Notes under the pieces: generated by a model
Databases searched by the model: none
What the model saw: only the letters and a program-made list of their open reading frames with translations
What the model was told of the DNA's origin: nothing
Part shown: positions 1-63,310 of the stretch, one piece after another
How positions within the stretch are numbered: position 1 is the first letter of the stretch
Layout: every line of letters starts with the position of its first letter
Assembly: GCA_014526335.1 (NCBI GenBank)
Contig: JACTAT010000060.1
Coordinates: 8,473,686 to 8,537,685 of the forward strand
DNA length: 64,000 bases
Direction of reading: 5' to 3'
Source: Chrysaora quinquecirrha
Taxonomy: Eukaryota; Cnidaria; Scyphozoa; Semaeostomeae; Pelagiidae
Position numbers and translations under genes: made by a program

Positions 1-712
1 CTATTTTGCGCAGCAGCCATCTGAGCGGGCGAAACTTTACAACATGGTGCAGGACAATCCGACGTACATTTATCAATACAAGGCCTTTGACAGATAACAG
101 TTGATTGACCGCCATTTTGACCAACATTTATTCGCTTGTGCATCGCAGCATTCTTGGGGGCAATTTCCTGCGCAGCGACCAACACATGGCGCTGGGCAAA
201 TAACGATGTTTATGTGGTTATTCCATCGGATTGAGCGGCTTTCGTAGAGGTTGTTGTTTGGAAAGGCTTCAAAGTGAAATGCGGTGTAGTTGGTTTTGTG
301 TTTGCTGTCGGTAAATTCGTTGCAGAATGAAACAGTTGCAGGTGAAACAGTAGGTGAGGCGAAATTACTTGCCAAGTCTTTCTGATGCATAACCAGTACA
401 ATCTTCTGCGCCTGGGCCGCTTTTGTGGGCTTCGCAGGATGATGATGTAAAGTATGCACGATATTGTTGTCACTGTTGGTAAGAGTGGGAGCTACTAACG
501 ACGATTCATCGGCTAATAATACTTGTTCCTGCACTGGTTTAACTAGCTTCACAGGAGCACTGACTATCTTCGAAGGTTCCAATGTTAATATTTTCTGTTG
601 GTGTACTTTAGGTTCTGTTGTAACTATCAATGGTCTCCCTATGACCGGCTTGATATGGTGTGTTTGATATAAAGGAGTGCATCGTTCAATACTACTGCTG
701 CCATAGTTGTTC
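1..712 (-). CDS. Exon 16 (partial): Val/Lys/Pro-rich segment and two minicollagen-type CRDs, with a frame offset between them
   Basis: The open frame contains CRD1 at 198-145 (C-PAP-C-VGR-C-AGN-C-PQE-CC), exactly the CXXXCXXXCXXXCXXXCC minicollagen signature. CRD2 lies at 92-39 (C-QRP-C-IDK-C-TSD-C-PAP-CC), equally perfect but in a frame needing one base fewer between 144 and 93; it stays open to the window edge. The frame can be opened at an ATG at 750 with a hydrophobic start (IILLLLIFFLL), but that stretch reads at DNA level as a polypyrimidine tract plus TTACTTAG, so it is probably intron. The acceptor at 712 gives the wrong phase after exon 15; TCATAG|GG at 638 gives the right one. Confidence 0.65.
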
Positions 713-3700
713 CTAAGTAAAAAGAAGATCAAGAGCAATAAGATAATCATGTTTAGAATTTGAGTATTTTTCCATAGAAGTAGAGGGTTGTTAAGTTTCT
801 GTGCTGGGAATGGATCTTGATTTATGAAGTTAAAGACAAAGCTCTCTATATCATGATACTTAGACTTATAACAAAAGTTTCAGTTTCCAATCATAGAATC
901 TTGTTATAAAAAGCCTTAGTAAGTCTAAAATCCAATTTTTGTGCAAAGAAATCTTAGATCTACATACCTTGATCGCACCTCTCCGAAGGCCCTTTCTTGC
1001 GAGTAATTCTCGGTTCTCGGTCACCAAAAACAGTCATGTCGGCACTAGTCAGTAGGTACTCGTGTTCAGTTTGTATCTCGTGTAATTCGCTCACTGTTTT
1101 CGGAATCATCCGTTGGTTAATAATCGCGAAATATTACGCGCAAAAAATTTTAAGCATCGGTGCGAAAACTGAGTAGTGCTGACATGACGTCATGACGGGA
1201 ACGCATAAAAGAATGGGCCTTCTGAGTGGTGATCACAAGGTCGAGTTCATAGATTTACGCCATTCGTGATTCAATTGAATTAATCGTATTATTTGCTACA
1301 CGACGACGTCACAACACAACTACAGTTTCCGCACCTACGCTAATCTAATCGTTAACGTATTAATCTGATTGAGGCCCTGGTCAAATGATCAAACAATGTT
1401 TGTCAAACAATTTAATTATCAAGCAATGCTTGAATGGCAACGTCACAAAACATTGCCTAACAAGCATAAATAAGCAGAATTCATTGCGCGATGTTTTGAA
1501 AAGTTCGAAAACATTTTTGCTCAAAATGTTTGACGAGCATTGTTTTCTGACGTGACCAAACGGTAAAACCATTTTGCTTAAGAAGCAAATTTTAAATGCT
1601 TGAAAAACAATGTTTGATCGTTTGGCCAATGCCTAAGTTTATGCAACAAATAAAGCATCTCAGTTAGGCCCTGGCCAAACGATGAAACATTTCCTGTCAA
1701 ACATTTGAAATTTGCTTGTCAAGCAAAATGTTTGACCATTTGTCACGTCTCAAAAATGCTCGTCAAATATTTGTCTTGCGTCAGGCAAAAATGTGTTCTG
1801 AACTTTTTCAAAAACATCGCACAACGAATTTTGCTTATTGATGCATGCCAAGCAATGTTTTGTGACCTGGCCAAACGTTTAAACATTGCTTGAGAGGCAA
1901 ATTTCAAATATTTAACCAACGATGCTTGATCGTTTGGCCAGGGCCTTATTCAAGCATTTGAAATTTGCAATGTTTGACCGTTTGGCCACTTCTCAAACCA
2001 TTGCCTGAGAGGCTGAATTCGCAAGCCACGATTTTTCCAAATGATCAAGATCGTTTGTCAAACATTTGAAATCTGCATAGAAAGTTGAAAATGTTTTAGA
2101 GTTTGACCACGTCGCAAAACATTGCTCAACATTGCCCAAGAAATTCTGTTTGTCAGTTAATGTTTTGTAGCGGGGCCAAACGCTCAAACATTGGTTGATA
2201 AACAAATTCCAGATGTTTGACGGGAAAATTTTTGACCGTTTGATCATATCAAAAAAACAATGCCTGTCAAAAAAATCTAGCTTATCTTGGCTTGTCAAGC
2301 AATGTTTTGTGACGTAATCAAACGATCAAACATTGTTTAAAAAGTAGATCTAAATGTTTGACCAACAGGGTTTGATCATTTTGCAAGGGCCTAAGTAAGG
2401 GTTAATAAGCAGATTAAAAGTAATTAAAAGAGCAGGAAATAATGTAAACATTGATAGGTTAAATGGTAATAGGTTAAACGGTTAAAACAAACCTCCGGTT
2501 ACAATGTTAGCTGCATCATGAACACGAACAATTTTATGAGAAACAGGTCGAACGATTTTATTAACAGGAAGGTCAGCAGCCATATTTGTCACAACAATAG
2601 AATTAGCTCCACCAATTACTTTGGTAGGTCTAATCACATGATTAATAACTTTGGGGCTGTGTATTATGTTCAGCTCGCCAGTTGCATCATCAACGATTAG
2701 TTTGCCTTGTTTCTGTTCATTATCATTAAAGATTAGTTGGTCATCTGTTAATTGTGAAAAAAGAGGATTAGGATGTTGAGTGATTAAATACTGGGATGTA
2801 CTCAAATTAGTGGTGTACAATAGCAGCTGGGCTGTGGAGGGAAATTGCTATCGATCTATCACTCAGGGGCATTAGTCCCTTAGGGCTTAGAAAGGATCGT
2901 AATACAGGAAAAAGCCCGCACTTAAGAACCCAAGTATTAGAATGCAGCCCCTGTTTGAAATCTTAGGCCCTTTTGCCAAAGGATCAAACATTGTCGCTCA
3001 AACATTTGCAATTTGCTTTACAAGCAATGTTTGACCGTTTGACCACGTCGCTGAACATTGCTTGACAAGCAAAAATAATTCAAATTTGTTGCACGATGTT
3101 TTTAAAAAACTTCAAAACATTTTCCGCTTGTAACAAGCAAAAAATGTCAGACAAGCAATGTTTTGCATGTGGCCTAACGAGACAACACTTTTTTGCCAAT
3201 TAAAATTTCAGATGTTTGAGGTCCAATGCTTGAACGTTTGGCCAGAGCCATATGCAATTAGATGCTCGATGAGATGTATACCATAATCAGGACTTTCTTA
3301 AAACAGGATCTAAAACAATTGCCATAAATACACAGCATGGTTCAAGCTTTAGCAGCTTTTAGCAGTCCCTAAGGCAACGTTTTCTGGAGTCAGTGAAAGT
3401 GGTTAACTTTCACAGAAGTTGTATTAAGACCTCTAAAACTTCTAAAACCTTTCTTAGACATAAGACCGAAATGGTTCTTACTTGTTTGGTGGTATGTCTA
3501 TAATTTCAAGCTCTTGTGAATGTTCTTATGTGTGGGTTTTACTGTACTGGGTACGTACAGCAAAAGTAAGGTAAGTTCGTTATAAACAAAGTCTTTCCTT
3601 TTTTCTGTGCCTCAGGGATGCTTTGAATGGTATGCCATTTTAAAAAGCTGTTTCACACGAGTACACTATAACGGGATAGGGAATAAGCCTATGGGTATTG

Positions 3701-6700
3701 TATTACATTACTAGTTACATCATCACATTAAGTCATATGTTATCGGAATTAGCTTTCACATAGAGACGCAAAGATTATTAGTCATTTACTTACCATTATT
3801 CGTATTTTCACTGACTTTTTCAGGGACCTTTGAGCCTAGAAAAAGAATAATTCGAGTTAAAACAAAGCTCTTGTCGCAATATAGTCAGTAATCATAGCCA
3901 GTAAAACACGACAACAAGATGTATAGTCTGTTCCTCTTAGTCCTCGCTTTCGAATCAATCATAGTTGTCAAACAGTGGAAATTTGAATTTGCTTGTCAAA
4001 CAAAATGTTCTACCGTTAAAACAAGCAGCAATGCTCGTCACACTATCTCGCAAACAAACAACTTTTAATTAACATTGTTGAATAAGTTTTGCTCTTGTAT
4101 TGCTGGTCAAGCAATAAAGTTTCGCTTGGCCATCTATAAAAAAATTCTAGATAGCTATTTGATTAAATAAACAGCCAGTACCCTGACAAAACGATTAAAC
4201 ATTGTTTACTAAGCATTTAGAATTGCAGATACCTTGCCCTGCCTGCAGCCTCAAACTCTTCTTTCGTAAAATGCTGTAGTAAAGTAGTAGAAGCAGTAAA
4301 CTCCTCTTTACGAAAGAAGAGTTTGAAGCTGCGCGCAGGCAACGAATCTGCAAATCTAAATGCTTAGTAAATAATGTTATAATGGGATCGGAGATATGCC
4401 TATGGGTACTGTCTTATATTACCCGCTAGATCATCAGAATAAGTAATATAATATCGGAATAAGTATAGCGTTGAGGCTGCGCGCAGGCTACAGATTGACA
4501 ACAAACATGTTAAAATGTTTTGCAATGTTGTTGAAAGTTTCAAACGTTTTTGAAAAATTTTTTATCGCTTAACAAATGATTTCAAGGTTGTCAAACAACA
4601 AAAGGTAGTTTTTTTTGAAAACGGAAAAAGGGCCTAAGAATAAATGAGTGATTACCTTCTGGGTCAACTGAAGTGACAAAAACAGTGATGTATGTATCCC
4701 CATCCAAGACAGGTCGAAATGAAATCGATTTCTGACCATCAAATTTAACAATCCTTCCAGCACCACTGACATCGACACCTTCAAACGTCACAAGTTGAGT
4801 AAGCTTCTTCTCGTCTTTATGTCTGAAAACGATTTTCAATTTCAATGATTTTGCATTTAATGGATACTCTTTATCTGAGCCAAGGGACGAGATGATTTTC
4901 ACACAACATTGTGCGTTGTTTATGAACTTCACTGCAACATACTTAACTGAAAAATAAAGACAAATAATAGTGATGGAGAGAGGAACAACAATAGTAAAAC
5001 TAATAGTAATAAGAATAGAGATCGCGGTAGTAATAGCAATAGCTGTCGTAAAACTAAATCTTTAGACTATACACGCTTTTTTTTATAAAGAACCACTTTA
5101 TAAGGAACCTACATGTAGATGGTACGAAAATTTGAGGAACTTAGACTACTAAAGAGAAAATCATTGAGGAACTTTTCAATGTTGAATGCTTTTATCGCTG
5201 CAAATAATCAAGAATTAGAAAGCCGGTTCCATTCATTTGCAGTCGAAAATCACATAATTGTACGTTAAGCGTACGTATCCAATGTTTCCTAGACTAGTCT
5301 CGAGCTTTGCTCACATGCAAGTGTCTCTCTTTTATTTTTAAGACCACTGTATGTGCAGTTAAAATTAAGGAACTTTTAAGGAACTTTTTGAACTACAATT
5401 GCCTCAAAAGAGGTCCAAAAATAAGGAACTTTAAGAACTAGGCCTTGAGGTAGGTTCCTTATAAAAAAAGCGTGTAATGCATTCTGATCTATCTTTTTTG
5501 AATCGCAGTAAATTGACTCATAGGTATCCGAATCATGCAGGTATCCTAGGTATCCTCAAGTATGCCTTAATTAGTATACTTAAAGTGCATTCCATCAAAG
5601 TGCTTCGCAATTAACGTTTACTGCGTGAAAACACTTTACAGCAAACAAGCTCATTGTATTAAGCCTTGGCTAAACGTCGCCAGCATTACAACCCAATATT
5701 TCGCTGAACTTTTTTTTGAATGTTGGCTGCTGTTGGGAAAGAGGTGGATAAACGTTGCCAACATTTAGCCAAACATTAATGTCTAAAGTCTTACCGTTTT
5801 TCAAGAGACTTCGTTTTTTGTCTCGAATCGGAAGCCTCCAAAATCTACTTCAGAATTCAGAAGAGACCTAACGTAAAACTCCTAAAAAACCCCACACTTA
5901 ATAGCAATAAGGCTTAAGAAAACCAGTGCTTTATCATGATTACATTGATTACATACCTATCGTTGTAGCAGTAGCAGTAGCAGCTGCTGAACTTGATGCA
6001 GATGCTGATGCTGAAGAAGTAGATGACGAAGAAGCTCCAGCTGTTCCTCCGGCGGCGCCAGTTGCTCCAGTAGCTCCTGTTGCTCCAGCGGATGTTGCCC
6101 CAACGTTGGTTTGAGATTGCGCGGTCTGTTGTACCTTAGCGTCTTGTTGGATATTCAATTTTCCACTCAAAGTATTGATTGTATTAAGAGCTAAGTCAGG
6201 ATTAATTTGAGCAGCAAGACCTATAAAAGACGGTATTTTTTGATTTGATACATAACGAGCAATGCTCAGTAGAAGATTGAGGAGCTATGAGACAAAGTTG
6301 CAGAACTGAAGACCAAAACGTGGGATCTGGTTCTTCTTCGTGGTCTCGGAGGCAAGGCACATTAACCTTGATAAGAGCAGTGACTACGGTAAAATATGCA
6401 ACAGAGAGAGGGCAGCAATGCAACACCAATGTGTTTTGAGATCTTTAGTGGAATGAAAGACCTTCGACAAACGTATAGAAATTATCGAGAAAAGTATAGT
6501 ATTACTAAAGCAAATAGCTACAAACTTTACCGGTATTTAATCCAATTTTAGCAGGCAGACTCATCTGATCCGTTATTTTAGATCCATACAATCCAAGACC
6601 TAGTAGCCCAGCAGCTCCGGCGGCAGCTTGTAGGCCAGCGGTGGCTCCTGCTCCAGCGGCACTTAGACCTCCAACACTATTAGCCCCTGCAGCACCAGCT

Positions 6701-9700
6701 GCTGCAGCATGCAAGCCAGCAGTACTTAGAAGTTGCTGAATTGAATTCGAGAGAGGAGATTTATCATCGGGTTCTTCTTCAAGGTCGCCTACATCTGAAA
6801 AATATGTTAAAAATCATATACAAAGGGTCTTTCAAAGGCGCTGGCAAAACAATCATCACTGTCAAACATCTGGGACTTGTAGGAAATGTTTGGCCGTCTG
6901 GTCACGTTACAAAACATTGCTTGACAAGGAGAATTGGCTTAGCTTTAGTGAAACATTTGAAACTAGCTTCACAAGCAATGTTTGGAAATTTGGCCACGCA
7001 GCAAAATATTGCTCGACAAGCAGAATTGGCTTAGCTTCAAAACATTCTATACACCTGATAAGCAAAAAATTTTGCAGGGGGATATTTTGATATAATGCCA
7101 CACAAATATCAAACATTTTGTGTGAGAAGCCAGTCTGAAATGTTTGACCAACAGTGATTAATTGTTCGACCAGGGTCTTATTCTAGCAAATAGTATGGGG
7201 AAAGCATGTTTCTGTTCTGCAGAATATTAGTGCTGTTCATGGTTTACGTTCCACCCTGTAACTCTAGCTTAAAAAATGATCATAAGCAAAAAGAAAACAT
7301 ACCAATTTTTCCTCCTCCAGCGCTTGAGCTTGAGCTACCAGCGGCCCCACCAGCTGCAGATCCGCCAGCTTTTCCACCAGCCCCACCTGCAGCAGCCCCA
7401 CCTTCAGCACCTCCTTCAGCTCCTTCTGCTCCACCTTCAGCTGCAGCACCCCCTGCTGCTGCCCCTTCTGCTGCCCCTTCAGCTTCCCCACCTCCTTCAA
7501 GTCCAGCTTCTTCATCAGAACCGGCTTCAATCTCTTCTGATAATTTCCCGCCTTCAGCTGCAGCCGATTCTTCTTTCTTCTTCTCCTGTTCTTCGTGTTT
7601 GCAATAATTAACACATGAATGTTGATCGCTATTATGATCAAGATCAATATGAACAGCAAGGAATGTGCAATCTTTAGTATAGCCAGCAGAAACCAGGTTT
7701 GCAGTGCCGCCAGCGTGGCAAAAGTATTGACCTCCAGAGAGTTGGATTCCATAAGCATCTGGATAATCTGTGTATTTATTCTCAAACACAAATGAAGCAG
7801 AAGTTGCTAGAAAATTAAAGAAACAAGAGAAATTAGCAATAGTAAACGTAGCAATAATATCAACAACTAATAGTAGTAGTCATAGTGATATTAATAGTAA
7901 AAGTAATAATAGTAGTGAAGTTGATATCAACTCCAATGAAATAGTGACAGTAATTGTAACAGAAACAGCAATAGAACAGTAATACGTATAATTATCTTAT
8001 ATTATAGCATAATATTTGAAGTAACAGTGAAATACTACTAGCAATTTTAGTAGTTATCGTGACATAAATATTGAAGGTGATAACTGGTATAGTAATAACA
8101 ATAGTAATAGTAATAGTAATAGAAGTAGTAATAGTTATAGTGATAGAAATAGTAATAGTAGTAATAGTAATAGTAATAATTATAAGTTATAGTAACAGTA
8201 ACAGAAAAAGTAATGGTAATAGTAACAGAAATAGTAATAGAAATATTAGTAACAGTAATTGTAATACTTATAGTAATAGTTATCGTAATAGTATTACATA
8301 ATAGCAAAAGTAATAATAATAGTAATAGCAATAGAAATAGTAATAGTAATAGTAACAAAAATAGTAAGATTAGTAGTAACAGAAATAGTAACAGTAATAG
8401 TAACAAAAACAGAAATATTTATAGTTAAAGTTATAGTAATAGTAACGGAAATAGTTAAAGTACTTGCAATAGTATTATTTATGGTTATAGCAAAAGTAAT
8501 AGTAATAGCAATGGTAATAGTAATAGTAATAGTAACGGTAATAGTGACAGTAACAGTAATGGTAACAGCAATAGTAACAATAATAGTACTTAATGTAATA
8601 GTAATAGTGATAGTAATAACAAAATAAGCACAATGATAGGAATTTTACATCTCTTGCTTACCTGCAGATCCAACGTTGATAACTTGCTTTGCTGAAAAGC
8701 TCGCTCCATCTAAGTGAACATAATATCCTCTATGGTCATCAAGCTCAAGAGAGAACGAGTTAGCATCACCATTCAAAGCAGGTTTATGCACAATAAACGT
8801 AGTTGCATGTTCTCTTGATTCCAAATGCAGCGAGTAATCATCTTGGTGAACTGACAAAGCGTACTTGCATACATGTCCATAAGGTTCTGCACATGGAAAG
8901 TTGGCACTGTACAGCCTGATCTTCAGCACTGAAAAATCAAGAAAATAATAGTAGAATAATGGTTTATACCACCAGTCTTTGTACCATTCCTCAGATCTGC
9001 GAACTTAGGCCAAGCGTTTAGGCAACGTTAGGGAAACGCCTTATCAACTGTACAGCTATGCACACCACCTACCAAGGAAACAGAACTTCCCTAACTAGAG
9101 GGGGGCTTCCAAAAGCCAAAAATTGGTAGAGAGTGCAAGTGCAAGGGTATTGACACAAATTTTTCATACGAAAAAATAAGCTTATCCTGAAAAAAATAGT
9201 TAGCGGTTGTGGTAAAACGATCGATGCCTAATATTGCAAGATTTTATGCAAAAATAGGATTGACAAACATTCGTTTGCAGGTATTTGCCGGTTGAAAAGG
9301 TGGGTTTTTGAGGATAACTCACTGAAAAGGGTATGAGCGTAGTGAGAAGTCTCTTGAGACAGGACCCAAACACATTCTAAGTAGGAACATTCCCCAAAGA
9401 TATGATGAGCAATCAAGAACTCGAAGGCATATCCCGGCAAATGTAACTAACTTTTGATTACTTACTGTATTTCCTTGATTCCGCTGTTTTATCTGGAAGA
9501 AAGATATGAGATTTTAAGACAACGATATTTCGCATAGCCCGCAAAGATCAGATTAAACTTGTCTTGAAAAAACAATCAGTTGTGACTCGGATGTGTTTTC
9601 AGAGCGCCCATTTTGTAAATAAAACTTACAGACAAACATAATATATGCGAGGCCAAGTGTTATTCTTTCTTCTATTTCACTTTTTTCTAGTAATTTTCTT

Positions 9701-12700
9701 CTTAAATAAGGGAATGCTCGTTTTCCAGTGTAGCCCAGGGCTTTTGATAGTAAACAAATTTCAAAAAGGAGGCTCCTCAATCTGTTACTTGAAGTAATTG
9801 GTTTACATTTCCTCAGTTGTCACAGAGAAGAGAGAAGTTAGGATCTATTGAATATCATGATCATCGCTCGTGGCATACTGCTTCTAATTGCAAAGAAACC
9901 AAGACTACAGCACAAATAGAAGCTCTTAATATGAACCTACTTTTCTGTGCTAACAGCTCTTCAAGAGGCACTCCTAATGCATCAGCTACTGCTTGAAGAC
10001 CAGCATGCTTTCCAGCCTCTTCTCCAGCTTTCTGACCAGCTTCTCTTCCTGCATCTCGGCCTGCTGCCTGACCGGCATCAGATCCAGCTTCGTGTCCTAT
10101 AATGCAGTTACATAATGATTTCAAAAATCAGTTTCAATCCAACAAAAGTGAGCAGATTACACGCTTCTTTTTCAAAAGAACCACTTGTTAAGGAACCTAC
10201 ACGAAGAAGGCCGAAATGGCATACAAGCACGAATATGAAGCCAGTTCTATTTGATTGGACTAAATATACAATGCAGTTAAAATTAAGAAACTGTTAAAGA
10301 ACTTTTGGTACTACAATTGAATCAAAAGAGGTCCCAGAAAGGAAATTTGGAACTAGACCTTGAGCTAGGTCCGTTATAACATAAAAGGCGTGTAAAAGTG
10401 CTGCAACTTTCAAGTAACACTATGACACGGTATGATAAGGTATGGTATTTATAATAGGTATTGGCATATTATTGCATGCTTTGGTATGGTATGGTATGGT
10501 ATGGTATGGTATGGTTTGGTGTGGTATGGTATGGTATGGTATGGCACGGTATGGTATGGTATGGTATGGTATGGCACGGTATGGTATGGTATGGTTTGAT
10601 GTTTTCCGGTATGGTATGGTATGTAATGGTATGATATGGTATGGTATGGTATTGTATGGTATGATATGGTAGGGTATGGTATCGTATGGTATCGTACATA
10701 TGACGTATTCCGATATGGTATTTAATGATATGTTTTGGTATGGTGTGGTATGGATGGTATGGCTATGTACTGTATGGTTAGTATAACAAGTATTCTTTGG
10801 CATGGTATGCCATGAAACTATGTGGTATGATAAAGTATGGTATGATATGCATGGTATGATAGGCAAGGTATTGGAATAGCATGGCTTATGGTATGTCATC
10901 GTACGGTATCAGGGTATGGTGAAGCATAGTCTCTTATTTTGTGGTATGCTGTCGAATGGTATTGTATGGCAAAGTATGGTATGGCAATTTACATTATGGT
11001 ATGGTATGATTTGGTAGGGTGTGGTTTTGTATTGCATGGTATGGTATGGGGTATGGTATGGTATGGTATTGAATACTTGGCAAGAAAGTTAATGTATGCT
11101 ATGCTACTGTTTGGCATGGTAAATTATTGTATGGCATGGTATGGTATGGTTTGGTATGGTTTGGTATGGCATGGCTGGTACAGCATAATGTGCATTCCAC
11201 ACTGTAAAGATGGCATAAGAACAAGTTCAACATACCAGCTTTGCCTGCTGCTTTTTCTGCTTCTTCAATTGGAAGCTCAGTATTATTCGCTTTCGCAGAA
11301 GCAGAGGATGCTTCAGCATGAGCAGCTGTAATGAAAGAATTTAAAATGATAAAATCATAGTCGAAAATGCCTTCAATAGCTCATAATAAATATCCAACGC
11401 TGCATGTTCTCCAGTGCCAAAAAGCGGAGGGTCCTAATAAAAAGGGAGGTGAAATTTTTGAGTTGTGATTATAATCGTATCTTGTAGCAATGTAGAGTAA
11501 GGATTTGACCAGTGTCTTCCCGACGAGAGAAAGTCTTGCTCAGATTGAAAATCCGGGAGGATTAATAAACAGGGGCGTAATAAGCTCGGGGAGAAGGAAA
11601 ATTTTTGAAAAATTTATAAGCATCCCTGATGATCTTTGGTCTTTTCATAAACAACTACGTATTGATGATGATGAGCGAGAGTTCCTTAGCTTATCTGGAA
11701 TCGAAGTTTTCCTGTGTTTCTTGGACTGAAATTCGAACCCCCTGCTTATTCAAACTTCTCTGCTAATAAGATGTTGCATGAATTTCCGACCCCCTGCTTA
11801 GCTTATACCACCACCCCCAAGCAACCAAGCAATAACAAACGTAAGAATAGTTTAGCAACAAACATTTTGTCCAAATATATGACTGTGAAACAGGAAACAC
11901 TCTAGATCCACTTGGAACAACGACTCCAACTTGAAAATGATGATGTCCATAAAGTTGTTTGTGCAGTCCTTCCAAATAATACATTTTGCCTTTTTGCAGA
12001 GTGATCGGAGCTGATTTCTGGTTTGGAAATCTAGGGAAGAAAATGATGAATATTGGATTAGATCTATTACTAAACAAGGCCAGCTTAAGGAAGGTTTGGA
12101 GGTAAGGTAGGATAGGTGACAGAGTGTTTATGTTATAGAGTCAGAGGAGGGTATGGTAGGGTGTCGGAATTATACGTTTTAGGGTCGCCAAATAATTCTA
12201 TTGTTTGAAGAGCCAATCAAATTGCAAATAGACAAGACCGATACCAGGTTCGAGGTCGAATATGGACAGCGAAGTTTCACGTAGAGGCTTATTCGCCCTG
12301 GGGAAGAGGTTGACGATAACCCACTTACGTTTCAAACTCGCCAGAGTGTAATTTCTGCTGTCCAATGACTTCAGCAATTTTTACTAAATTTGTAGGAGAG
12401 TCATCAGTGCTCAATGAAAACGTGCCTTCTGCGTTGCTTGCTTGAAAAAAAGGAGAAAATAATTTCAAAATTCAAAAATAGAGATTGGTCTAAAGCCCTG
12501 ACCAACCGATCAAACATTCCACCTCCCACGTGTAATACCACTGACAGCCTGATGCCTGACGTGCAACATTGGGCTAAGTTCCTCATTCAGTCTAGCTGCA
12601 CTGATGAACCCTGAAATTGGGCGAAACCGGTTTGTAGCTGACTGTTTGAGGTGTCGGTGGTTTTCTTACACTTGGCCCCGATCAAACATTGTTGGTTAAA

Positions 12701-15700
12701 CATCTGAGATTCCTTGCCAAGCTAAATGTTTCACTTCACCATTTGGCAATGTTGCAAAACATCACAGGTCAAACATTTATTGTTTGTGATAAACATAAAA
12801 TGTTTCCGAATGTTTTCAAGAACATTGCTGGTGGATTTTTGCTTGCCAAGCGATATTTTGCACCGTGGACAAACGGTCAAACAATGCTGATCAAACATCT
12901 GAAATCTTCTTGTCAAACAAAATGTTTCCCGTTCGATTACGTCGAAAAACATAAAAGATCAAACATTTATTGCTTATGATAAACAGAGAATGTTTTTGAA
13001 GCTTTTCAAGGGCATTGCTGAGCGAATTCTGCTTGCCAAGCAATGTTTCGCATTGTGGCCAAACATGCACCATTGCTTGTAAAGCAAATTTCAAATGTTT
13101 TATCAGCAAGGTTTGATAATTTGGCCGAGGCCGAAAGAGTTATACAATTGAACAGATAAAGGTTGAATAAGCGTACTTTAAAAAACAACTAGTAAAGTTA
13201 CCCACTACAGGAAAGTTTGTTCGAATATTTTAACTTTGTTAATAACTGAAAACGGCCACTGATTCAACCTGGTGATGTCTGTGCAGTACGGGGGTGTGCA
13301 GTACAGTGGAGGGATATCATCAGTACAGTAGAAGGATTTCATCAGTACGGTGGATTTTCAGTACTGACTGTACTGTACTGATGATATCCCTCTACTGTTC
13401 TGAATAACCTCCACCGTACTGATGATATCCCTCAACTGTACTGAAAATCCTCCACCGCACTGATGATAGCCCTCCAGCGTACTGAAAATCCTCCACCGTA
13501 CTGATGATATCCCTCCACCGTACTGAAAATCCTCCACCGTACTGATGATATCCCTTCACTGCACTGAAAATCCTCCACAGTACTGATGATATCCCTCCAC
13601 CGTACGGAGGGCGTACGGAACATCCCCGACTGTATTGACGAGGTCCCTCCACTGTACTGAAAATCCTCCACCGTACTGATGATATCCCTCTACTATACTC
13701 AATATCCTCTAATTTACTGTACTTGTGTGATTCGTATAAACAACCCGTTAAGAGTTTATAAGAAGAGTGCGATTAAAAGCGAGAAATTATAGTAGCTGAA
13801 TTATTCAAGTTTTAAAGGGGGCATTTATTCGAGGGGGCGTTTATTTATAAGAAGGGGTGGGGCTTCAATCGAAAAAACACTTTAAGGGACAAAGAGTTTA
13901 AATGATAAAATATTTGTACTCACAACAATAGAATACATGCGGTCCATCCTCGTGGGGTTTGAAAAACCCGAAAATTCTGGTTCCATAACTTTCGTCAGGA
14001 ATTCCACTTCCTTGCTCTTCCAAGCTTGTTATTTGCAAAGTTTGATCGGGACTATTAGGATACTTCGGAGAGTTTGTGATGTCGCTAACCATGTAGCCAT
14101 CAAGTTTGCTGTAAATTTCTAGAGTCAGGCCAGGAACGAAGTCTGTTGGAAAGAGAAATAGAGAATATTAAACGCGTTTACGGATGTTTTGAGATGTGAA
14201 GATTGATTGTACCCAAATAAGTGGCGTACAGGAGTGGGCTGTGGAGTCCTTAGGAAATCGTTATCGATCTATTACTAAGAGGCCTTAGTCCGGGCTTAGA
14301 GGGGACCGTGATACAGTAGAAGCCCGCACATAAGAATATGGGTTAGTATACAGGCAATGTTGGAAGATTTGCAGCATATATAGCTACACAATACGTTCAG
14401 ATTTGTTATTGTTCCACATAGGCCCTTCACACCCACTTCAATATTGGACAGTTTGTTTCATTTACATCAGAAGTAACTGCTCCATGATGCAGGCGAAAAT
14501 GCGTAATGAAATCCAAGAGAAAGTGATCAACATTGAATGGGGAGGGGCCAAAGATAAAGACCCAAAATCAATATGACTGAGTATCTGTCTCAACATGTTT
14601 TGCCCATTATTGTGGCCTCGAAAGCCATTAAATTTTGCCGTATTTCTCCAAGTTGTAGTTTTAGCGTCCATAAATTCAACTTAACAGTGATACAACAAAT
14701 ATGACTCGGATACTTCTACGAAAGAAACTTCAAAAATATTACCTGGCGACCTCCTTTCTCTGACCACCACATTAGTCGCGACAACTGTATTCTTGAAGTC
14801 TGTTTTTACAAAAAATATATCATATAGCAGCGTTATATATATTATATATCTTTAATAAAAATAATATGTCGGTAGCATTGATAAACGATAAGACCGTGCA
14901 ACAAGAATGGATGAGTCTTGATCTGCCCCGACATTAGTTGGGACAGGCTTGGTTAAAGATCACTCTTTTCCTAGCCTGGCCTGATATGCTTCACTCTTTT
15001 GAACACGACATTTTGAAACCGAAATATAATGGGAAATAAACGAAGAAAGTTTCTTGTAGAAGAAATAGTTCGAGCTTTGCGCCATGAGCACGCAGTGAAA
15101 ATTTTGGCTCCAATCCAAACCTGAACAGGTCAAAATGGATCCATTCTCAGTCGCACAAGGTCTTGGGAACAAATTACAGCGATATATCAGGGATACGATA
15201 CATGCTATGCAAATATATTGTAATTTATAGAAAACTGCAAGTCATGGTCAAAAAGTCCTGTCTAGTAAAAAAGTCATGTCTGGGCAAAAAAGTCCTGTCT
15301 AGTAAAAAAGTCATGTCTGGTAAAAAAGTCATGTCTGGTAAAAGACATGTCTTGTAAAAAAGTCATGTCTGGTAAATATAAGTCGTCTCGTAAAAAGTCA
15401 TGTCTGGAATGAAAAATCGACAATTTGGCTGGTGGCTAAGCAAATCAAAGCAAAGGAAAAGCAAATAACGCCATCTTGTAGTATTCAAGTTAAGAAATTG
15501 ATCAAAAGGTCGCGATAAAGTTAGGGAAGACGGATACGACCCAGTCATGAAGTGTTCCAGAAAGTGCACTTTGTTTCTCTATGAGGTCTGTTATCATTCG
15601 CTTTTTCAACCAGAAGATTTGTATAAATATGTAAACTAAACAAGCTTGTTGCACGGTCTTGATTTGAGGTCGAACTAATTTATTCATGATCAATTGTAAA

Positions 15701-16152
15701 TAAAACAATTATCTACAATTTGCAACAAATTAAAAGATTGGTAAACTATGGTTGAAGTTTGTAGGAAAGTATGAGATTTGGAAACTATATAATAACTTTA
15801 AACTGCGAAGAAGAGTGGGAGGTAACTAGGTTTCTTAAAATGCTCCGAGGAAGTAAAAACTGAGGGACTAGTAAATACGTGTCTGGTCATGCAACTTTTA
15901 TAGGAGTGCGCCAAGGATGTGCACTAGCCTCTATGATATTGCAAAAGTAAAATAACATGAAATAGCTGTTAAAGGACTTTAGCACAAACTGCAATATAAA
16001 GATTCATGCAGTAGAAGAAGAATAAATATAAGCAAGGCAAGCTTACCATTTTGTTGCGTCTCGGCAGGTAACACTTCCGTTGCATGAGATTTTTGGAGTG
16101 CCACAAGAATCACTGCTAGTAATATTAGTGTAAGATTTGATGTTTTACTCAT
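1..16152 (-). CDS. Large secreted modular protein: signal peptide, PA14, silk-like Ala/Gly blocks, minicollagen CRDs (3' end off window)
   Basis: Exons read on the minus strand: 16152-16047, 14799-14743, 14142-13924, 12440-12329, 12030-~11864, 11325-11236, 10096-9941, 9492-9466, 8928-8662, 7806-7303, 6794-6531, 6220-5957, 4946-4656, 3835-3794, 2831-2493, then ~638 (or 712) to beyond 1. All have AG acceptors and GT donors, and phases chain without a break from the ATG at 16152 to 2493 (about 968 residues). Exon 1 encodes a signal peptide (hydrophobic core LTLILLAVILVAL, then SHA). Order: PA14 (~52-215), xxAG repeats (~250-300), possible beta-trefoil (~305-440), acidic then Ala/Gly-rich (~445-570), Ala/Gly/Ser-rich (~570-745), beta-rich domain (~745-840), Lys/Val/Pro-rich linker, CRDs. 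The CRDs suggest a nematocyst-capsule or other cnidarian extracellular structural role; this is inference. No Gly-X-Y collagen tract is seen. Weak points: the donor of exon 5 and the acceptor of exon 16. Confidence 0.8.
968..1109 (-). CDS. Candidate alternative first exon
   Basis: From an ATG at 1109, 47 codons read MIPKTVSELHEIQTEHEY... to CDQ and end CAA G|GTATGTA, a very strong phase-1 donor. There is no signal peptide and no polypyrimidine tract upstream, so it looks more like a first exon than an internal one. A perfect TGACGTCA (CRE/ATF site) lies at 1185-1192. It could splice in frame to the exon starting at 638, giving an isoform without a signal peptide, or belong to a gene continuing off the window. 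Confidence 0.3.
1185..1192. promoter_or_regulatory. CRE/ATF-type palindrome TGACGTCA
   Basis: A perfect 8-base palindrome 76 bases upstream of the ATG of the candidate exon at 1109, in a stretch unusually rich in CG dinucleotides for this window. Consistent with a promoter, but an 8-mer alone is weak evidence. Confidence 0.3.
1373..1635. mobile_element. Family M1 TIR element, copy a
   Basis: Starts GGCCCTGGTCAAATGATCAA and ends TTTGATCGTTTGGCCAATGC: terminal inverted repeats of roughly 25 bases flanking AT-rich DNA with repeated AAACATTGCTTG-like words. No transposase ORF, so non-autonomous. It lies in the last intron of the secreted modular gene. Confidence 0.7.
1670..1950. mobile_element. 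Family M1 TIR element, copy b
   Basis: Same family as 1373-1635: starts AGGCCCTGGCCAAACGAT, ends ATCGTTTGGCCAGGGCCTTA. The inner half is also palindromic in places (TTGCTTGTCAAGCAAAATG). Confidence 0.75.
1951..2394. mobile_element. Family M1 derivative, copy c (rearranged)
   Basis: A longer, degenerate member next to copy b with several internal copies of the TTTGACCGTTTGGCCA word, ending TTTTGCAAGGGCCTAAG. Probably two overlapping or nested copies. Confidence 0.5.
2493..2831 (-). CDS. Exon 15: linker rich in Val, Ile, Lys, Asn and Pro
   Basis: 339 bp, phase 1-1, with acceptor CCTCCACAG|CC and donor GGA G|GTTTGT. It encodes a polar then Val/Ile-rich stretch with spaced prolines (SPKVINHVIRPTKVIGG, KIVRPVSHKIVRV). 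The next exon begins in the same style (KPVIGRPLIVTTEPK), which links the two despite the 1.8 kb of transposon-filled intron between them. The acceptor lies within a dispersed repeat also seen near 14224-14357. Confidence 0.7.
2818..2950. repeat. Dispersed repeat overlapping the acceptor of exon 15
   Basis: The words GGGCTGTGGAG, ATCGATCTAT, AGCCCGCAC and TAAGAA occur in the same order at 14224-14357. The copy here includes the CCTCCACAG acceptor (minus strand) of exon 2831-2493. Confidence 0.6.
2967..3251. mobile_element. Family M1 TIR element, copy d
   Basis: Starts TAGGCCCTTTTGCCAAAGGA and ends GAACGTTTGGCCAGAGCC. Same internal layout (AAACATTGCTTGACAAGC). Lies in an intron of the secreted modular gene. 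Confidence 0.65.
3794..4946 (-). CDS. Exons 13-14: beta-rich domain of unknown family plus micro-exon
   Basis: Exon 4946-4656 (291 bp, phase 1-1) encodes about 97 residues with alternating hydrophobic strands (KYVAVKFINNAQCCVKI, KLKIVFRHKDEKK, TYITVFVTSVDPEG), likely a beta-sandwich; I do not recognise the family. A 42-bp micro-exon (3835-3794, phase 1-1, acceptor TTTTTCTAG, donor AAT G|GTAAGT) adds SKVPEKVSENTNN. Confidence 0.7.
4199..4378. repeat. Long hairpin (foldback) in an intron of the secreted modular gene
   Basis: Perfect 19-base arms at 4252-4270 (CAAACTCTTCTTTCGTAAA) and 4307-4325, with outer imperfect arms at 4199-4229 and 4347-4378 (ACATTATTTACTAAGCATTTAG-like). About 180 bases fold into one long stem. 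No ORF. Confidence 0.7.
5068..5478. mobile_element. Family M2 TIR element, copy a
   Basis: Starts TACACGCTTTTTTTTATAAA and ends TTATAAAAAAAGCGTGTA, with internal inverted blocks around AAGGAACCT and AGGTTCCTT. Non-autonomous; no ORF. In the intron between exons 12 and 13. Confidence 0.75.
5957..6794 (-). CDS. Exons 11-12: Ala/Gly/Ser/Thr-rich silk-like modules
   Basis: Two exons of identical length (264 bp, both phase 1-1): 6794-6531 and 6220-5957. The first starts acidic (DVGDLEEEPDD) and becomes Ala/Gly-rich (HAAAAGAAGANSVGG). The second starts with a polar helix-like segment (LAAQINPDLALNTINTLSGK) and turns into GATGATGATG, a Ser-rich run and alternating Ala/Ser and Ala/Thr pairs. Acceptors TTTTTCAG and TTTTATAG and donors ACC G|GTAAAG and ATA G|GTATGT are clean. 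Equal length suggests a tandem exon duplication, though sequence similarity is now mostly compositional. Confidence 0.75.
6836..7183. mobile_element. Family M1 TIR element, copy e (diverged)
   Basis: Internal words CAAAACATTGCTTGACAAG and TTGGCCACG-like repeats with degenerate ends (GGCGCTGGCAAAACAATC ... TTGTTCGACCAGGGTCTTA). Sits between exons 11 and 10 of the secreted modular gene. Confidence 0.55.
7303..9492 (-). CDS. Exons 8-10: possible beta-trefoil region, then acidic and Ala/Gly-rich tail
   Basis: A 27-bp micro-exon (9492-9466, phase 1-1) leads into exon 8928-8662 and exon 7806-7303. Together they encode repeated beta-rich motifs (FSLELDDHRGYYVHLDG and YGIQLSGGQYFCHAGG) with paired cysteines. 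The spacing recalls arabinose-binding AbfB-type beta-trefoils, but the match is weak and unverified. The second half of exon 10 changes abruptly to a charged stretch (EEQEKKKEES), then more than 80 residues almost entirely Gly, Ala and Glu, ending in a run of Ser and Gly. The composition resembles silk or elastic matrix proteins. Confidence 0.7.
7840..8620. repeat. Degenerate trinucleotide array (AGTAATAGT)n
   Basis: About 780 bases built from AGT and AAT triplets in the intron between exons 10 and 9 of the secreted modular gene. The long Tyr/Leu or Ser/Asn reading frames it creates are repeat artefacts. Confidence 0.85.
9941..11325 (-). CDS. Exons 6-7: Ala-rich helix and xxAG tetrapeptide repeats
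   Basis: Exon 11325-11236 encodes an Ala/Glu/Lys-rich stretch ending EEAEKAAGKA. Exon 10096-9941 then gives eight consecutive xxAG tetrapeptides (HEAG, SDAG, QAAG, RDAG, REAG, QKAG, EEAG, KHAG) followed by a possible amphipathic helix (LQAVADALGVPLEELLAQ). Both exons are phase 1-1 (acceptors TTACAG and TTATAG; donors GCT G|GTATGT and AAA A|GTAGGT). The intron between them carries the pentanucleotide array at 10424-11180. Confidence 0.75.
10157..10394. mobile_element. Family M2 TIR element, copy b
   Basis: Starts TTACACGCTTCTTTTTCAAA and ends ATAAAAGGCGTGTAA. Shares the internal CAATTGAATCAAAAGAGGTCC segment type with copy a. Just upstream of exon 7 on the minus strand. Confidence 0.7.
10424..11180. 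repeat. Pentanucleotide array (TATGG)n
   Basis: Core at 10485-10700 is almost pure TATGG, decaying on both sides. Lies in the intron between exons 7 and 6 of the secreted modular gene. Confidence 0.9.
11864..14142 (-). CDS. PA14 domain exons (3-5) of the secreted modular protein
   Basis: Exons 14142-13924, 12440-12329 and 12030-~11864 encode a full PA14 beta-barrel. Landmarks: GLTLEIYSKLDG at the start, SDITNSPKYPNSPD, YGTRIFGFFKP, FSLSTDDSPTN with VKIAEV, then SAPITLQKGKMYYLEGLHK and FQVGVVVPSGSR. PA14 domains in secreted and fibrocystin-type proteins usually bind carbohydrate or mediate adhesion; calcium-binding residues are not clear here. The phase-2 junction between exons 4 and 5 lies inside the domain, while its outer borders are phase 1. 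The last donor is uncertain: AAAT|GTTTGT at 11864 gives the phase needed by the next exon. Confidence 0.85.
12674..13134. mobile_element. Family M1 element(s), copy f
   Basis: Starts GGCCCCGATCAAACATTG and ends TTGATAATTTGGCCGAGGCC, with two internal segments of the same type, probably a tandem or nested pair. A solitary end (CCCTGACCAACCGATCAAAC) lies at 12495-12514. Confidence 0.55.
13271..13712. repeat. Minisatellite of two alternating ~21-base units
   Basis: Units TCCACCGTACTGAAAA and TCCACCGTACTGATGATATCC alternate, giving a ~42-base period. Located in the intron inside the PA14 domain. Confidence 0.85.
14224..14357. repeat. Second copy of the dispersed repeat at 2818-2950
   Basis: Same word order in an intron near the PA14 exons. 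Confidence 0.6.
15243..15410. repeat. ~17-base minisatellite (AAAAAAGTCATGTCTGGT)n
   Basis: About nine units, variants TCCTGTCTAGT and TCATGTCTGGT, in the intron between exons 2 and 1 of the secreted modular gene. Confidence 0.8.
16047..16152 (-). CDS. Exon 1: start codon and signal peptide
   Basis: The ATG at 16152 opens 35 codons: a short polar N-terminus, an uninterrupted hydrophobic core and a small-residue stretch (QKSHA) that suits signal peptidase. It ends AAT G|GTAAGC, a strong donor in phase 1. The next upstream ATG (16159) hits a stop after four codons, so 16152 is the start. A possible 5'UTR acceptor (AAATTTTCAG) lies about 30 bases upstream. Confidence 0.8.
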
Positions 16153-17073: not shown

Positions 17074-17562
17074 ATAGCTCACCTAGGCTCACTACATAAG
17101 CCCCACTACTTCACTCGATGTTGTTGTTGTTGTTTTCTACAATCCCTCAGTGACAAATCAAAATAAGGGGAGCGTAAAATAGAGACTCGTGTCGTGAGTC
17201 TATAGCTCACGGTCGTTGGCCCTCTGGTCATGCAATCTTGGTTCAAATCACATCTATTGTGATGTGCCACTTATTGAAAAATCTATCCTAGTGTTCGCCA
17301 TTCATGACCATGTTCCAAATAAATTAGCAATCATATACGAAGGAGGGAAGCCAAAATCTTCGCCAAAATCTTCCGAGACAAGGCTGATGATAGCCGTTCG
17401 TTCTTGGGACGTCTTCTAAGACATGGGACATGATAGATAGGCAGGTAGCTAGTAGATAGACAGATATAAAAGGACATCGTGTGTGCAAACCCCGCAAAGG
17501 TATGGTATGAGATTCTGTAAAGGCACTGAACAGAAATCTGCAAAGGTTTGAACAATTCTGTA

Positions 17563-17837
17563 AGGCCCTGGCCAAACGATCCAACATTGGTTGTCAAACA
17601 TTTGAAGTTTGCTTGTCAATCAATGTTAAAGCGTTTGGCCACGTCGAAAACATTGCTTGCCACAGAATTCGTCGCACGATGTTTTGAAAAAGTTCAAAAA
17701 CATTTTATGCTTGATGTAAAGCAAACAATGTTTAACGAGTATTATTTGCAACATTGCCATAAGGTAAAACATTATGTTGAACAAGAAAATTTCAAATGTT
17801 TGACAAACAGTGTTTGATCGTTTGGCCAGGACCTAAG
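17563..17837. mobile_element. Family M1 TIR element, copy g (best preserved)
   Basis: Starts AAGGCCCTGGCCAAACGATC and ends GATCGTTTGGCCAGGACCTA. 275 bp, near-perfect ends of about 20 bases, flanked by TAA/TTA-like triplets that may be the target duplication. Good reference copy for the family. Lies between the secreted modular gene and the first GPCR. Confidence 0.75.
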
Positions 17838-18119
17838 AGTAGAAACAATTGTAATTGTAATTGTAATTGTAATTGTACATTGTTTAACGTTAGTAACACA
17901 ATAGTGATAAACACTAATTCAAACTAACATGAAGCAACTCCACAGATTGCATCAAAGATTCATTTAATACAGAAGGAATTCTGTAACAATAGATTCTGTA
18001 AGCTCGCAACAATTTGTGCCCAAATATCTATAAGTGCAGGAGAAATTTTGAAGATTCATACCGTTTCATTCAAGCAAAAGTATTGTCTAAATCAACATCA
18101 GATTGTAATTTGTTTCTAG

Positions 18120-18659: not shown

Positions 18660-19578
18660 ACAGAGTCCAAAGAAATAGTGTTTGAAGAAACATTGCTTGA
18701 AGAAAAAGTGTTTGAAGAAAACTGTTTGAAGAAAACTGTTTGAAGAAACAGTGTTTGAAGAAAACTGTTTGAAGAAACAGTGTTTGAAGAAACATTGTTT
18801 GAAGAAAGAGTGTTTGAAGAAAACTGTTTGAAGAAACAGTATTTGAAGTAAACTGTTTGAAGAAACAGTGTTTGAAGAAAACTGTTTGAAGAAACAGTGT
18901 TTGAAGAAAACTGTTTGAAGAAACAGTGTTTGAAGAAAACTGTTTGAAGAAAGAGTGTTTAAAGAAACTGTTTGAAGAAACAGTGTTTAAAGAAAACTGT
19001 TTGAAGCAAGAGTGTTTGAAGAAACTGTTTGAAGAAACAGTGTTTAAAGAAAACTGTTTGAAGCAAGAGTGTTTGAAGAAACAGTTTGAAGAAACAGTGT
19101 TTAAAGAAAACTGTTTGAAGCAAGAGTGTTTGAAGAAACTGTTTGAAGAAACAGTGTTTAAAGAAACAGTGTTTGAAGAAAGAGTGTTTAAAGAAACTGT
19201 TTGAAGAAACAGTGTTTAAAGAAAACTGTTTGAAGCAAGAGTGTTTGAAGAAACTGTTTGAAGAAACAGTGTTTAAAGAAAACTGTTTGAAGCAAGAGTG
19301 TTTGAAGAAACAGTTTGAAGAAACAGTGTTTGAAGAAAACTGTTTGAAGCAAGAGTGTTTGAAGAAACTGTTTGAAGAAACAGTGTTTAAAGAAACAGTG
19401 TTTGAAGAGACAGTGGTTCGAGAAACAGTGTTTGAAGAGGCAGTGTTTGAAGAAACAGTGTTTGAAGAGGCAGTGTTTGAAGAAACAGTGTTTGAAGAGG
19501 CAGTGTTTGAAGAAACAGTGTCTGAAAAAAAACAGTATTTGAAGAGACAGTGGTTCGAGAAACATTGTTTGAAGAAAC
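18660..19578. repeat. Minisatellite of ~15-base units (TGTTTGAAGAAACAG)n
   Basis: About 60 units alternating GAAACAG and GAAAAC versions, with higher-order blocks (…AAGCAAGAG…). It ends about 22 bases before the ATG of the GPCR at 19601. Its long Phe/Glu/Cys-rich frames are repeat artefacts. Confidence 0.85.
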
Positions 19579-19600
19579 AAAATATTCGTTCAAAATCAAC

Positions 19601-24470: not shown

Positions 24471-24568
24471 ATCGGCTGAGGACTAAGTTTCGAGTGCTCG
24501 CCTTAGCAATTAGCCTCCTCTAAAAAAAAACAACCGATTTCAAAGATAACATTCGTTTTACAAGGAGC

Positions 24569-57920: not shown

Positions 57921-63310
<5,390 letters not shown>

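What the first reader, a model, noticed from the sequence alone, without database searches (positions are those of the whole stretch)
1..16152. A secreted PA14 / silk-like / minicollagen-CRD fusion protein
Seen: one gene with signal peptide, PA14, xxAG repeats, long Ala/Gly/Ser blocks and C-terminal minicollagen-type CRDs, with phases that chain over 15 exons. Known: CRDs crosslink minicollagens in the nematocyst capsule wall; PA14 often binds glycans. Inference: a non-collagen structural protein joining silk-like elasticity to CRD disulfide crosslinking, perhaps for nematocyst walls or tubules or another cnidarian matrix. I know of no described protein with this architecture.
Basis: partly seen in the sequence, partly recalled or inferred. 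Interest (0 to 1): 0.92.

Follow-up and report, generated by a model that had tools for sequence, protein, structure and literature searches.

The report
Giant PA14-silk protein with minicollagen crosslinkers
This stretch of what is likely a cnidarian (jellyfish, coral or anemone) genome holds exons that likely form one gene for a giant, predicted secreted protein joining two predicted sugar-binding domains and silk-like blocks to the cysteine motifs that crosslink the walls of stinging capsules; Hydra has a relative with a matching front and tail end but without those motifs, so the pair would let one test how such a protein came to be wired into the sting capsule.

Summary
On the minus strand, window 16152 to 1, twelve exons splice into signal peptide, PA14, xxAG repeats, an AbfB-type domain and Ala/Gly/Ser blocks; a thirteenth carries two minicollagen CRDs with the exact CX3CX3CX3CX3CC spacing. 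An uncharacterised Hydra protein, LOC100213554, confirms the exon model (37% identity over 450 alignment columns, E 5e-81). The protein does not end at the CRDs: exon 13 runs about 7.5 kb past the window edge into a very long acid-rich tail. Hydra has the same front end and a matching C-terminal block in one protein, but no CRD and no long Ala/Gly/Ser blocks. A second relative (P0010, species unknown) has both CRDs and the tail in one frame. Together they favour one gene, but the exon 12 to 13 join is unresolved, and a signal-peptide-like ATG at 750 keeps a two-gene reading open (about 25%). The protein is no minicollagen, cnidoin or NOWA by the tests run; it would work most like NOWA (lectin plus CRDs). 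Location in nematocysts is inferred, not shown. New variant of a known kind.

The parts
16047..16152 (-). Exon 1: start ATG and predicted signal peptide (MSKTSNLTLILLAVILVALQKSHA...)
   Evidence: Hydrophobic run 3.64, one of only two signal-peptide-like ATGs on this strand in 16.2 kb; donor ATG|GTAAGC, phase 1
13924..14142 (-). Exon 2: PA14 domain, first part
   Evidence: tblastn of Hydra P0008 E 2e-11; blastp
12329..12440 (-). Exon 3: PA14 domain, middle
   Evidence: No tblastn hit of its own at E 1e-3, but inside the collinear blastp alignment to Hydra
11864..12030 (-). Exon 4: PA14 domain, end
   Evidence: tblastn of P0008 E 4e-10; PA14 segment 22.6 bits in Pfam, cut-off 24
11236..11325 (-). 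Exon 5: Ala/Ser linker, start of xxAG repeats
   Evidence: In frame, phase 1
9941..10096 (-). Exon 6: xxAG repeats
   Evidence: 52% identical to Hydra P0008 301-348, E 6e-9
8662..8928 (-). Exon 7: AbfB-type domain, first part
   Evidence: 50% identical to Hydra P0008 351-423, E 7e-16; Hydra segment is AbfB in Pfam, 33.1 bits, cut-off 22.8; own sequence gives no AbfB hit
7303..7806 (-). Exon 8: AbfB-type domain, end, then the Glu/Ala/Gly/Ser-rich silk-like block
   Evidence: 41% identical to Hydra P0008 437-512, E 7e-11; block 75% A+G+S over 79 residues
6531..6794 (-). Exon 9: Ala/Gly-rich block
   Evidence: In frame, phase 1; no counterpart aligned in Hydra
5957..6220 (-). Exon 10: Gly/Ala/Thr and Ser/Ala blocks
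   Evidence: In frame, phase 1; no counterpart aligned in Hydra
4656..4946 (-). Exon 11: conserved domain without a Pfam name, strands predicted
   Evidence: blastp to Hydra E 3.5e-7; no Pfam family above its cut-off; single-sequence model poor, pLDDT 52.6
2489..2831 (-). Exon 12: Lys/Ile/Val/Pro-rich linker; 3' end uncertain (2493 with the better donor)
   Evidence: Acceptor phase 1; donor for joining to 712 scores 2 of 9, alternative donor 6 of 9 but phase 1
979..1093 (-). Possible bridging exon between exons 12 and 13 (phase 1 in, phase 2 out); unsupported
   Evidence: Splice sites only; no similarity to the Hydra stretch tested
712..750 (-). Signal-peptide-like stretch (MIILLLLIFFLL) in the CRD frame, directly before the acceptor at 712: polypyrimidine tract or start of a second gene
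   Evidence: Hydrophobicity 3.65; the other 11 acceptors reach at most 1.77
1..712 (-). Exon 13, part inside the window; continues to about -7507 in the flanking loci L002 and L003
   Evidence: tblastn of P0010; long frames
145..198 (-). CRD1, CPAPCVGRCAGNCPQECC
   Evidence: Exact spacing; the 4 PDB matches up to E 10 are all minicollagen or NOWA, but weak, E 2.8-5.1; one residue different in P0010
39..92 (-). CRD2, CQRPCIDKCTSDCPAPCC, in another frame than CRD1 in this assembly
   Evidence: Exact spacing; no PDB match up to E 10; counterpart CERPCIDRCSKSCPSACC in P0010

Best explanation
The exons likely form one gene for a giant predicted secreted protein that would tie carbohydrate to the disulfide network of a stinging capsule, in the manner of NOWA. 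Shown: exons 1-12 splice into signal peptide, PA14, xxAG repeats, an AbfB-type domain, Ala/Gly/Ser blocks and a conserved unnamed domain, collinear with a Hydra protein where it has counterparts; exon 13 carries two minicollagen-type CRDs, a basic stretch with a six-cysteine cluster, and a long acid-rich tail. Inferred: exons 1-12 and 13 are one transcript; the protein enters the nematocyst vesicle; PA14 and AbfB hold glycans; the CRD pair forms disulfides with minicollagens and other CRD proteins as the capsule matures; the Ala/Gly/Ser blocks are flexible or elastic spacers; the charged tail holds water and cations. Whether the CRDs were gained here or lost in Hydra is open.
For: Spliced protein against Hydra P0008: 37% identity over 450 columns, E 5e-81, and exon 11 E 3.5e-7. 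All six cysteines of the AbfB-type domain are shared (positions, alignment). Hydra holds the front end and a 54-residue C-terminal block of the tail in one protein (hhalign E 2.8e-6, probability 88%; local score 87 against at most 77 in 500 shuffles). P0010 holds CRD1, CRD2, the six-cysteine cluster and the tail in one frame. CRDs: exact spacing; a profile of six CRDs finds NOWA and minicollagen first in the PDB (E 0.012-0.47 for the top four of eight matches). CRDs drive disulfide polymerisation (PMC4863159, passages); NOWA joins a lectin to CRDs (PMC10014300, passages).
Against: No transcript, protein or expression data. Exon 12's better donor does not fit the strong acceptor at 712, and an in-frame signal-peptide-like ATG lies at 750. 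Exon 12 resembles neither P0010 1-100 nor Hydra 690-860. Hydra has no CRD, so its single gene says nothing direct about the CRDs. P0010 starts inside exon 13, so its front end is unseen. CRD2 alone has no PDB match. PA14 stays below Pfam's cut-off (22.6 against 24 bits), and AbfB is found in Hydra but not in the window's own sequence. Whether this genome holds canonical minicollagens did not complete. AbfB proteins also occur in Hydra's basal-disc glue (PMC5080974, passages).
Confidence: 0.55

Rival explanations
1. Two adjacent genes on one strand: a PA14-silk gene that ends in or near exon 12, and a separate CRD-plus-acidic-tail gene that starts at the ATG at 750 with its own signal peptide.
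For: MIILLLLIFFLL at 750 is in the CRD frame and much more hydrophobic (3.65) than the sequence before the other 11 acceptors (at most 1.77); it and the ATG at 16152 are the only such starts on this strand in 16.2 kb. Exon 12 runs to a stop (NIVTGGLF*) and its better donor is out of phase with 712.
Against: In Hydra the PA14 front end and the C-terminal tail block are in one protein. P0010 shows no signal peptide before its CRDs, though its start may be a calling artefact. A polypyrimidine tract reads as hydrophobic residues by nature. Between 2495 and 740 there is one ATTAAA and no AATAAA, weak evidence.
Confidence: 0.25
2. One gene, but the protein belongs to another secretion (underwater glue, mesoglea or another matrix), and the CRDs serve as general disulfide crosslinkers there.
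For: Two AbfB-domain transcripts are among Hydra's basal-disc adhesive candidates (PMC5080974); the Hydra relative has no CRD, so the ancestral role need not be in the capsule; silk-like and charged low-complexity proteins are common in matrices (PMC4944945, passages).
Against: The CRD proteins named in the passages I read (minicollagens, NOWA, cnidoin, CPP-1) are nematocyst proteins; the Hydra glue proteins named there carry other identifiers than LOC100213554.
Confidence: 0.25
3. A decaying gene: the frame switches in exon 13 are real mutations, so the CRD2 and tail parts are no longer made.
For: Six frame switches in about 8.2 kb of exon 13; a receptor at 19526-20589 also looks frame-broken.
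Against: Between switches the frames stay open for up to 1,173 codons; CRD2 beyond the first switch keeps all six cysteines; five of the six stretches examined hold a run of five or more equal bases, as with long-read errors, though such runs are common and this is weak; P0010 is intact. Only one copy of window 1-900 was found in the assembly.
Confidence: 0.08

Closest known systems
Hydra vulgaris LOC100213554 (uncharacterised protein, isoform X7, 3,542 aa; P0008)
   Same: Signal peptide, PA14, xxAG repeats, AbfB-type domain with the same six cysteines, exon-11 domain and a C-terminal block, collinear
   Different: No CRD; no long Ala/Gly/Ser blocks between the AbfB-type domain and the exon-11 domain; the middle of the tail is not alignable with confidence
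P0010 (3,048 aa, ENA source, species not given)
   Same: CRD1, CRD2, six-cysteine cluster, acid-rich tail and end point
   Different: Only the exon-13 part is present in the record; front end unseen
NOWA (nematocyst outer wall antigen, Hydra)
   Same: Predicted sugar-binding domain plus minicollagen CRDs; the nearest functional model (PMC10014300, passages)
   Different: C-type lectin and eight CRDs; no C-type lectin found in the 1,117 residues scanned here
Cnidoin (Hydra)
   Same: Silk-like sequence combined with minicollagen CRDs (PMC4321713, first part of the text and passages)
   Different: Gly/Gln repeat between two terminal CRDs, 403-residue mature protein; GxGQQ does not occur in the frames checked here; the passages and the term count show no PA14 in that paper
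CPP-1 (cnidarian proline-rich protein 1, Hydra)
   Same: CRD-polyproline-CRD, like the neighbouring segment at about -9700 to -10380 (PMC6910907, passages)
   Different: No flanking fibronectin type II domains are mentioned in the passages read
Minicollagens
   Same: CRD spacing CX3CX3CX3CX3CC (PMC4863159, PMC3145756, passages)
   Different: Short Gly-X-Y collagen flanked by polyproline; none here
Hydra mega-thrombospondin
   Same: A cnidarian secreted protein with a PA14 domain (PMC6526912, one passage)
   Different: Thrombospondin superfamily protein with cadherin domains; no CRD mentioned in the passage

Membership tests
Minicollagen | CRD with spacing CX3CX3CX3CX3CC | tested here: met
   Two in the window, both exact
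Minicollagen | Short Gly-X-Y collagen domain | tested here: not met
   No run of 8 or more Gly-X-Y on the gene strand of the 114 kb read nor in the spliced protein
Minicollagen | Propeptide ending in Lys-Arg | tested here: not met
   No KR in the spliced protein up to the stop after CRD1
Cnidoin | Gly/Gln-rich repeat with GxGQQ between CRDs | tested here: not met
   No GxGQQ or QMQG in the spliced protein, no GxGQQ in four long frames of exon 13; two shorter frames were not checked
Cnidoin | Silk-like elasticity and fibre formation | not testable with these tools
   Only composition was measured
NOWA | C-type lectin domain with multiple CRDs | tested here: not met
   Pfam scan of 1,117 residues finds no C-type lectin; two CRDs rather than eight
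PA14 domain | Pfam PA14 at the curated cut-off | tested here: inconclusive
   22.6 bits against 24, E 1e-4; Hydra 23.9; phmmer E 2.3e-25 to a PA14-annotated bacterial protein
AbfB domain | Pfam AbfB at the curated cut-off | tested here: inconclusive
   Hydra counterpart 33.1 bits against 22.8; own sequence no AbfB hit up to E 10, but aligned to Hydra with all six cysteines
Family of Hydra LOC100213554 | Collinear SP-PA14-xxAG-AbfB front end | tested here: met
   E 5e-81 over 450 columns
Family of Hydra LOC100213554 | Same gene continues into the tail with the C-terminal block | tested here: inconclusive
   Block is there on the same strand, but the exon 12/13 join is unresolved
Nematocyst structural protein | Expression in cnidocytes and presence in capsules | not testable with these tools
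   No expression or proteome data at hand

The most novel reading that the evidence does not exclude
An old cnidarian secreted protein (PA14, xxAG, AbfB, giant charged tail) took up a pair of minicollagen CRDs and silk-like spacers and so became a giant crosslinker that couples capsule carbohydrate and a polyelectrolyte of more than two thousand residues to the disulfide-linked nematocyst wall: a class of capsule component that I found in no paper searched, with Hydra's CRD-free relative as the natural comparison.
Probability: 0.35. Interest if true: 0.75.

Novelty: new variant of a known kind. Interest (0 to 1): 0.6.

Why it matters
CRDs are the module that links secreted proteins into a wall that holds about 150 bar. 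The carriers described in the papers I read are small (minicollagens, cnidoin, CPP-1) or lectin-based (NOWA). A giant protein with two candidate sugar-binding domains, elastic-looking spacers and a very long charged tail, with CRDs in two species and without them in Hydra, makes a question directly testable: does adding a CRD pair move an existing matrix protein into the capsule wall? It also suggests a design for disulfide-curing, glycan-binding materials.

Tried and rejected
Relatives: one search (words from residues 1-480; candidates 614-1,955 aa; only the 7,995 sharing most words were scored) gave 3 proteins: two with PA14 and a glycosyltransferase. One search (1,145-3,643 aa; 1,996 candidates) gave 3 PA14 proteins. 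One search (5,560 candidates) gave 18, of which 16 carry PA14 in their precomputed domains and the other two are P0008 and P0010. Hydra's 3,542 aa lay inside search 2's length range and was still missed, so absence in these searches is weak evidence.

CRDs against the PDB: CRD2 no match up to E 10. CRD3 (neighbouring segment) has kalata B1 and B7 first (E 0.013, 0.05), then NOWA and minicollagen (E 0.13-0.94); I take the plant peptides as chance. P0010's CRD pair: minicollagen only, E 0.33 and 0.58. PA14 against the PDB: vinexin at E 0.26 only, rejected.

Exon-11 structure from a single sequence: mean pLDDT 52.6; Foldseek 855 matches up to E 10, 0 up to 0.001; no fold claimed. Exon 12 against exon 13: score 44, reached by 38 of 1,000 shuffles; too weak to argue for one gene. 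A bridging exon 1093-979 is possible but the joined peptide is no more like Hydra than shuffles. A signal-peptide exon for the downstream FN2-CRD-polyproline-CRD-FN2 segment: none convincing. Rfam: 0 matches in the window.

The own-genome search for other CRD genes did not complete, so whether this genome holds canonical minicollagens is untested; 'cnidarian' rests on the CRDs and the Hydra relative.

Full report
What the sequence shows. On the minus strand, from an ATG at 16152, twelve exons with GT-AG borders read as one frame: predicted signal peptide; PA14 over exons 2-4; an Ala/Ser linker; nine xxAG units in exons 5-6; a domain over exons 7-8; Ala/Gly/Ser blocks in exons 8-10 (75, 49 and 51% A+G+S in the stretches measured); an unnamed domain in exon 11; a linker in exon 12. 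The introns are phase 1 except 3/4 (phase 2) and the unsettled 12/13. Exon 13 (from 712) holds two CRDs with the exact minicollagen spacing. A six-frame scan of the window finds these two only, and 100 first-order Markov sequences of 64 kb give none.

The window cuts the gene. The window is G000:C424:8473686-8537685 of a 328-Mb assembly of 740 contigs. In the 20 kb to its left the CRD2 frame runs on without a stop for 217 codons, and a chain of overlapping long frames, the last of 1,173 codons, continues to a stop at about -7507 in window coordinates. Exons 1-12 give 927 residues and exon 13 spans 8,220 bases, so the protein has roughly 3,650 residues. The exon codes for the CRD pair, a basic stretch (45 K+R+H in 110 residues), a six-cysteine cluster (CECQTVCKK...CTGCP), and an acid-rich tail (last 1,173 residues: 23.8% D+E, 14.6% K+R, no cysteine). 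In this assembly the frame switches six times along the exon.

Relatives. The third protein search found 18 proteins. Two matter: P0008, Hydra vulgaris LOC100213554 isoform X7 (3,542 aa, uncharacterised, Pfam AbfB), and P0010 (3,048 aa, ENA source, species not given). The other 16 all carry PA14 in their precomputed domains and I did not read them; of the PA14 proteins of the three searches I aligned 11, and Hydra's PA14 is nearer to ours (score 326) than any of them. tblastn of P0008 to window plus flanks lands in order on exons 2, 4, 6, 7, 8 and 11 (E 1.5e-5 to 6.6e-16) and on the tail (E 1e-23, inflated because composition correction was off). With composition correction the spliced protein aligns over residues 30-446 at 37% identity, E 5e-81, and over exon 11 at E 3.5e-7. 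This confirms the exon model and shows that exons 7-8 match the Hydra segment that is AbfB in Pfam (33.1 bits, cut-off 22.8), with all six cysteines shared. The window's own segment reaches no AbfB hit by itself, and PA14 stays just below its cut-off in both species. The tails share a 54-residue block: hhalign E 2.8e-6, probability 88%; local score 87 against at most 77 in 500 shuffles. Hydra has eight cysteines in all and no CRD. P0010 covers exon 13: CRD1 (one residue different), CRD2, the cysteine cluster and the tail to the same end, in one frame; the low-complexity middle is not aligned with confidence.

One gene or two. Hydra ties the front end to the tail; P0010 ties the CRDs to the tail; so the simplest reading is one gene with all of them. 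Against it: exon 12's better donor (GAG|GTTTGT, 6 of 9 consensus positions) has phase 1, but the strong acceptor at 712 needs phase 2, and the donor that fits (TTT|GTTTTA) scores 2 of 9, the lowest class. An ATG at 750, in the CRD frame, opens a stretch (MIILLLLIFFLL) far more hydrophobic (3.65) than the sequence before the other 11 acceptors (at most 1.77); it and the ATG at 16152 are the only signal-peptide-like starts on this strand in 16.2 kb. It may be a polypyrimidine tract read as protein, or a second signal peptide. I give one gene about 0.7 and two genes about 0.25. A transcript would settle it.

How it would work. CRDs polymerise proteins by disulfide exchange (PMC4863159, passages), and minicollagens with this CRD spacing build the capsule (PMC3145756, passages). 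NOWA pairs a C-type lectin with eight CRDs, and its authors propose that lectin domains of its oligomers crosslink surfaces of the incoming tube (PMC10014300, passages). PA14 and AbfB bind carbohydrate in other proteins (recalled, not from a call). So the protein would act as an outsized NOWA-like adaptor: sugar-binding front, flexible spacers, CRD pair locked into the wall, charged tail in the matrix. None of this was tested here. Two AbfB-domain transcripts are Hydra glue candidates (PMC5080974, passages), so a glue or matrix role is a live rival.

Against known kinds. Not a minicollagen: no run of eight Gly-X-Y. Not cnidoin: no GxGQQ in the frames checked. Not NOWA: no C-type lectin in the 1,117 residues scanned. 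Closest by descent: Hydra LOC100213554, named by no paper in the library. Paper searches: cnidoin with nematocyst 11; PA14 with minicollagen 0; PA14 domain with nematocyst 0; PA14 domain with cnidaria 1, on thrombospondins; arabinofuranosidase with nematocyst 1, the glue paper; none of the 20 papers listed of 379 held PA14. The library holds open-licence papers only, so this does not prove absence. Of the papers cited I saw passages, and of PMC4321713 also the first of eight parts.

Neighbour. From about -8840 to -11150 lie, on the same strand, a fibronectin type II exon, an exon CRD3-polyproline-CRD4 and a final fibronectin type II exon ending in a stop; both fn2 domains pass Pfam's cut-off (E 1.8e-16, 8.2e-17), and CRD4 matches NOWA CRDs in the PDB (best E 7.5e-4). 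The tail of the main gene ends in a similar acid-rich end in all three proteins, so this is more likely a separate CPP-1-like gene, but no signal-peptide exon was found for it, and alternative 3' exons of the main gene cannot be excluded.

Verdict.

Noticed in passing
L002:1-1200 and L003:8800-10000, minus strand (about -8840 to -11150 in window coordinates): FN2, CRD-polyproline-CRD, FN2: a CPP-1-like segment with fibronectin type II domains at both ends, 1.3 kb downstream of the main gene's stop on the same strand; separate gene or alternative 3' exons; a frame switch lies in its polyproline part.
   Followed up: partly
L002, window-relative about -690 to -780, minus strand: Six-cysteine cluster CECQTVCKK...GC...CTGCP in the basic stretch after the CRDs, kept in P0010 and without a Pfam match.
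   Followed up: partly
window 21503-27528 and 19526-20589: Cluster of single-exon rhodopsin-type receptors: three open frames pass Pfam 7tm_1 (E 7.6e-24 to 2.2e-29); a fourth at 19526-20589 looks frame-broken.
   Followed up: partly
window 34809-35183, minus strand: Exon of a single-subunit DNA-dependent RNA polymerase (Pfam RNA_pol E 7.9e-42), probably the mitochondrial one; further likely exons lie up to about 46.8 kb.
   Followed up: partly
window 57924-59565, minus strand: Protein kinase exons, below the Pfam cut-off one by one (E 3.1e-5 and 1.5e-4).
   Followed up: no
window 1373-2380, 2964-3260, 6830-7180, 12480-13140, 17560-17840: A recurring interspersed sequence (aaacattgcttg... and its complement), seen by eye, in introns and between genes; looks like a short mobile element.
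   Followed up: no
P0001, P0004, P0013 and other hits: After Hydra, the nearest PA14 domains found are in bacterial or metagenome proteins such as Verrucomicrobia; whether this reflects old transfer or only the search method is open.
   Followed up: partly
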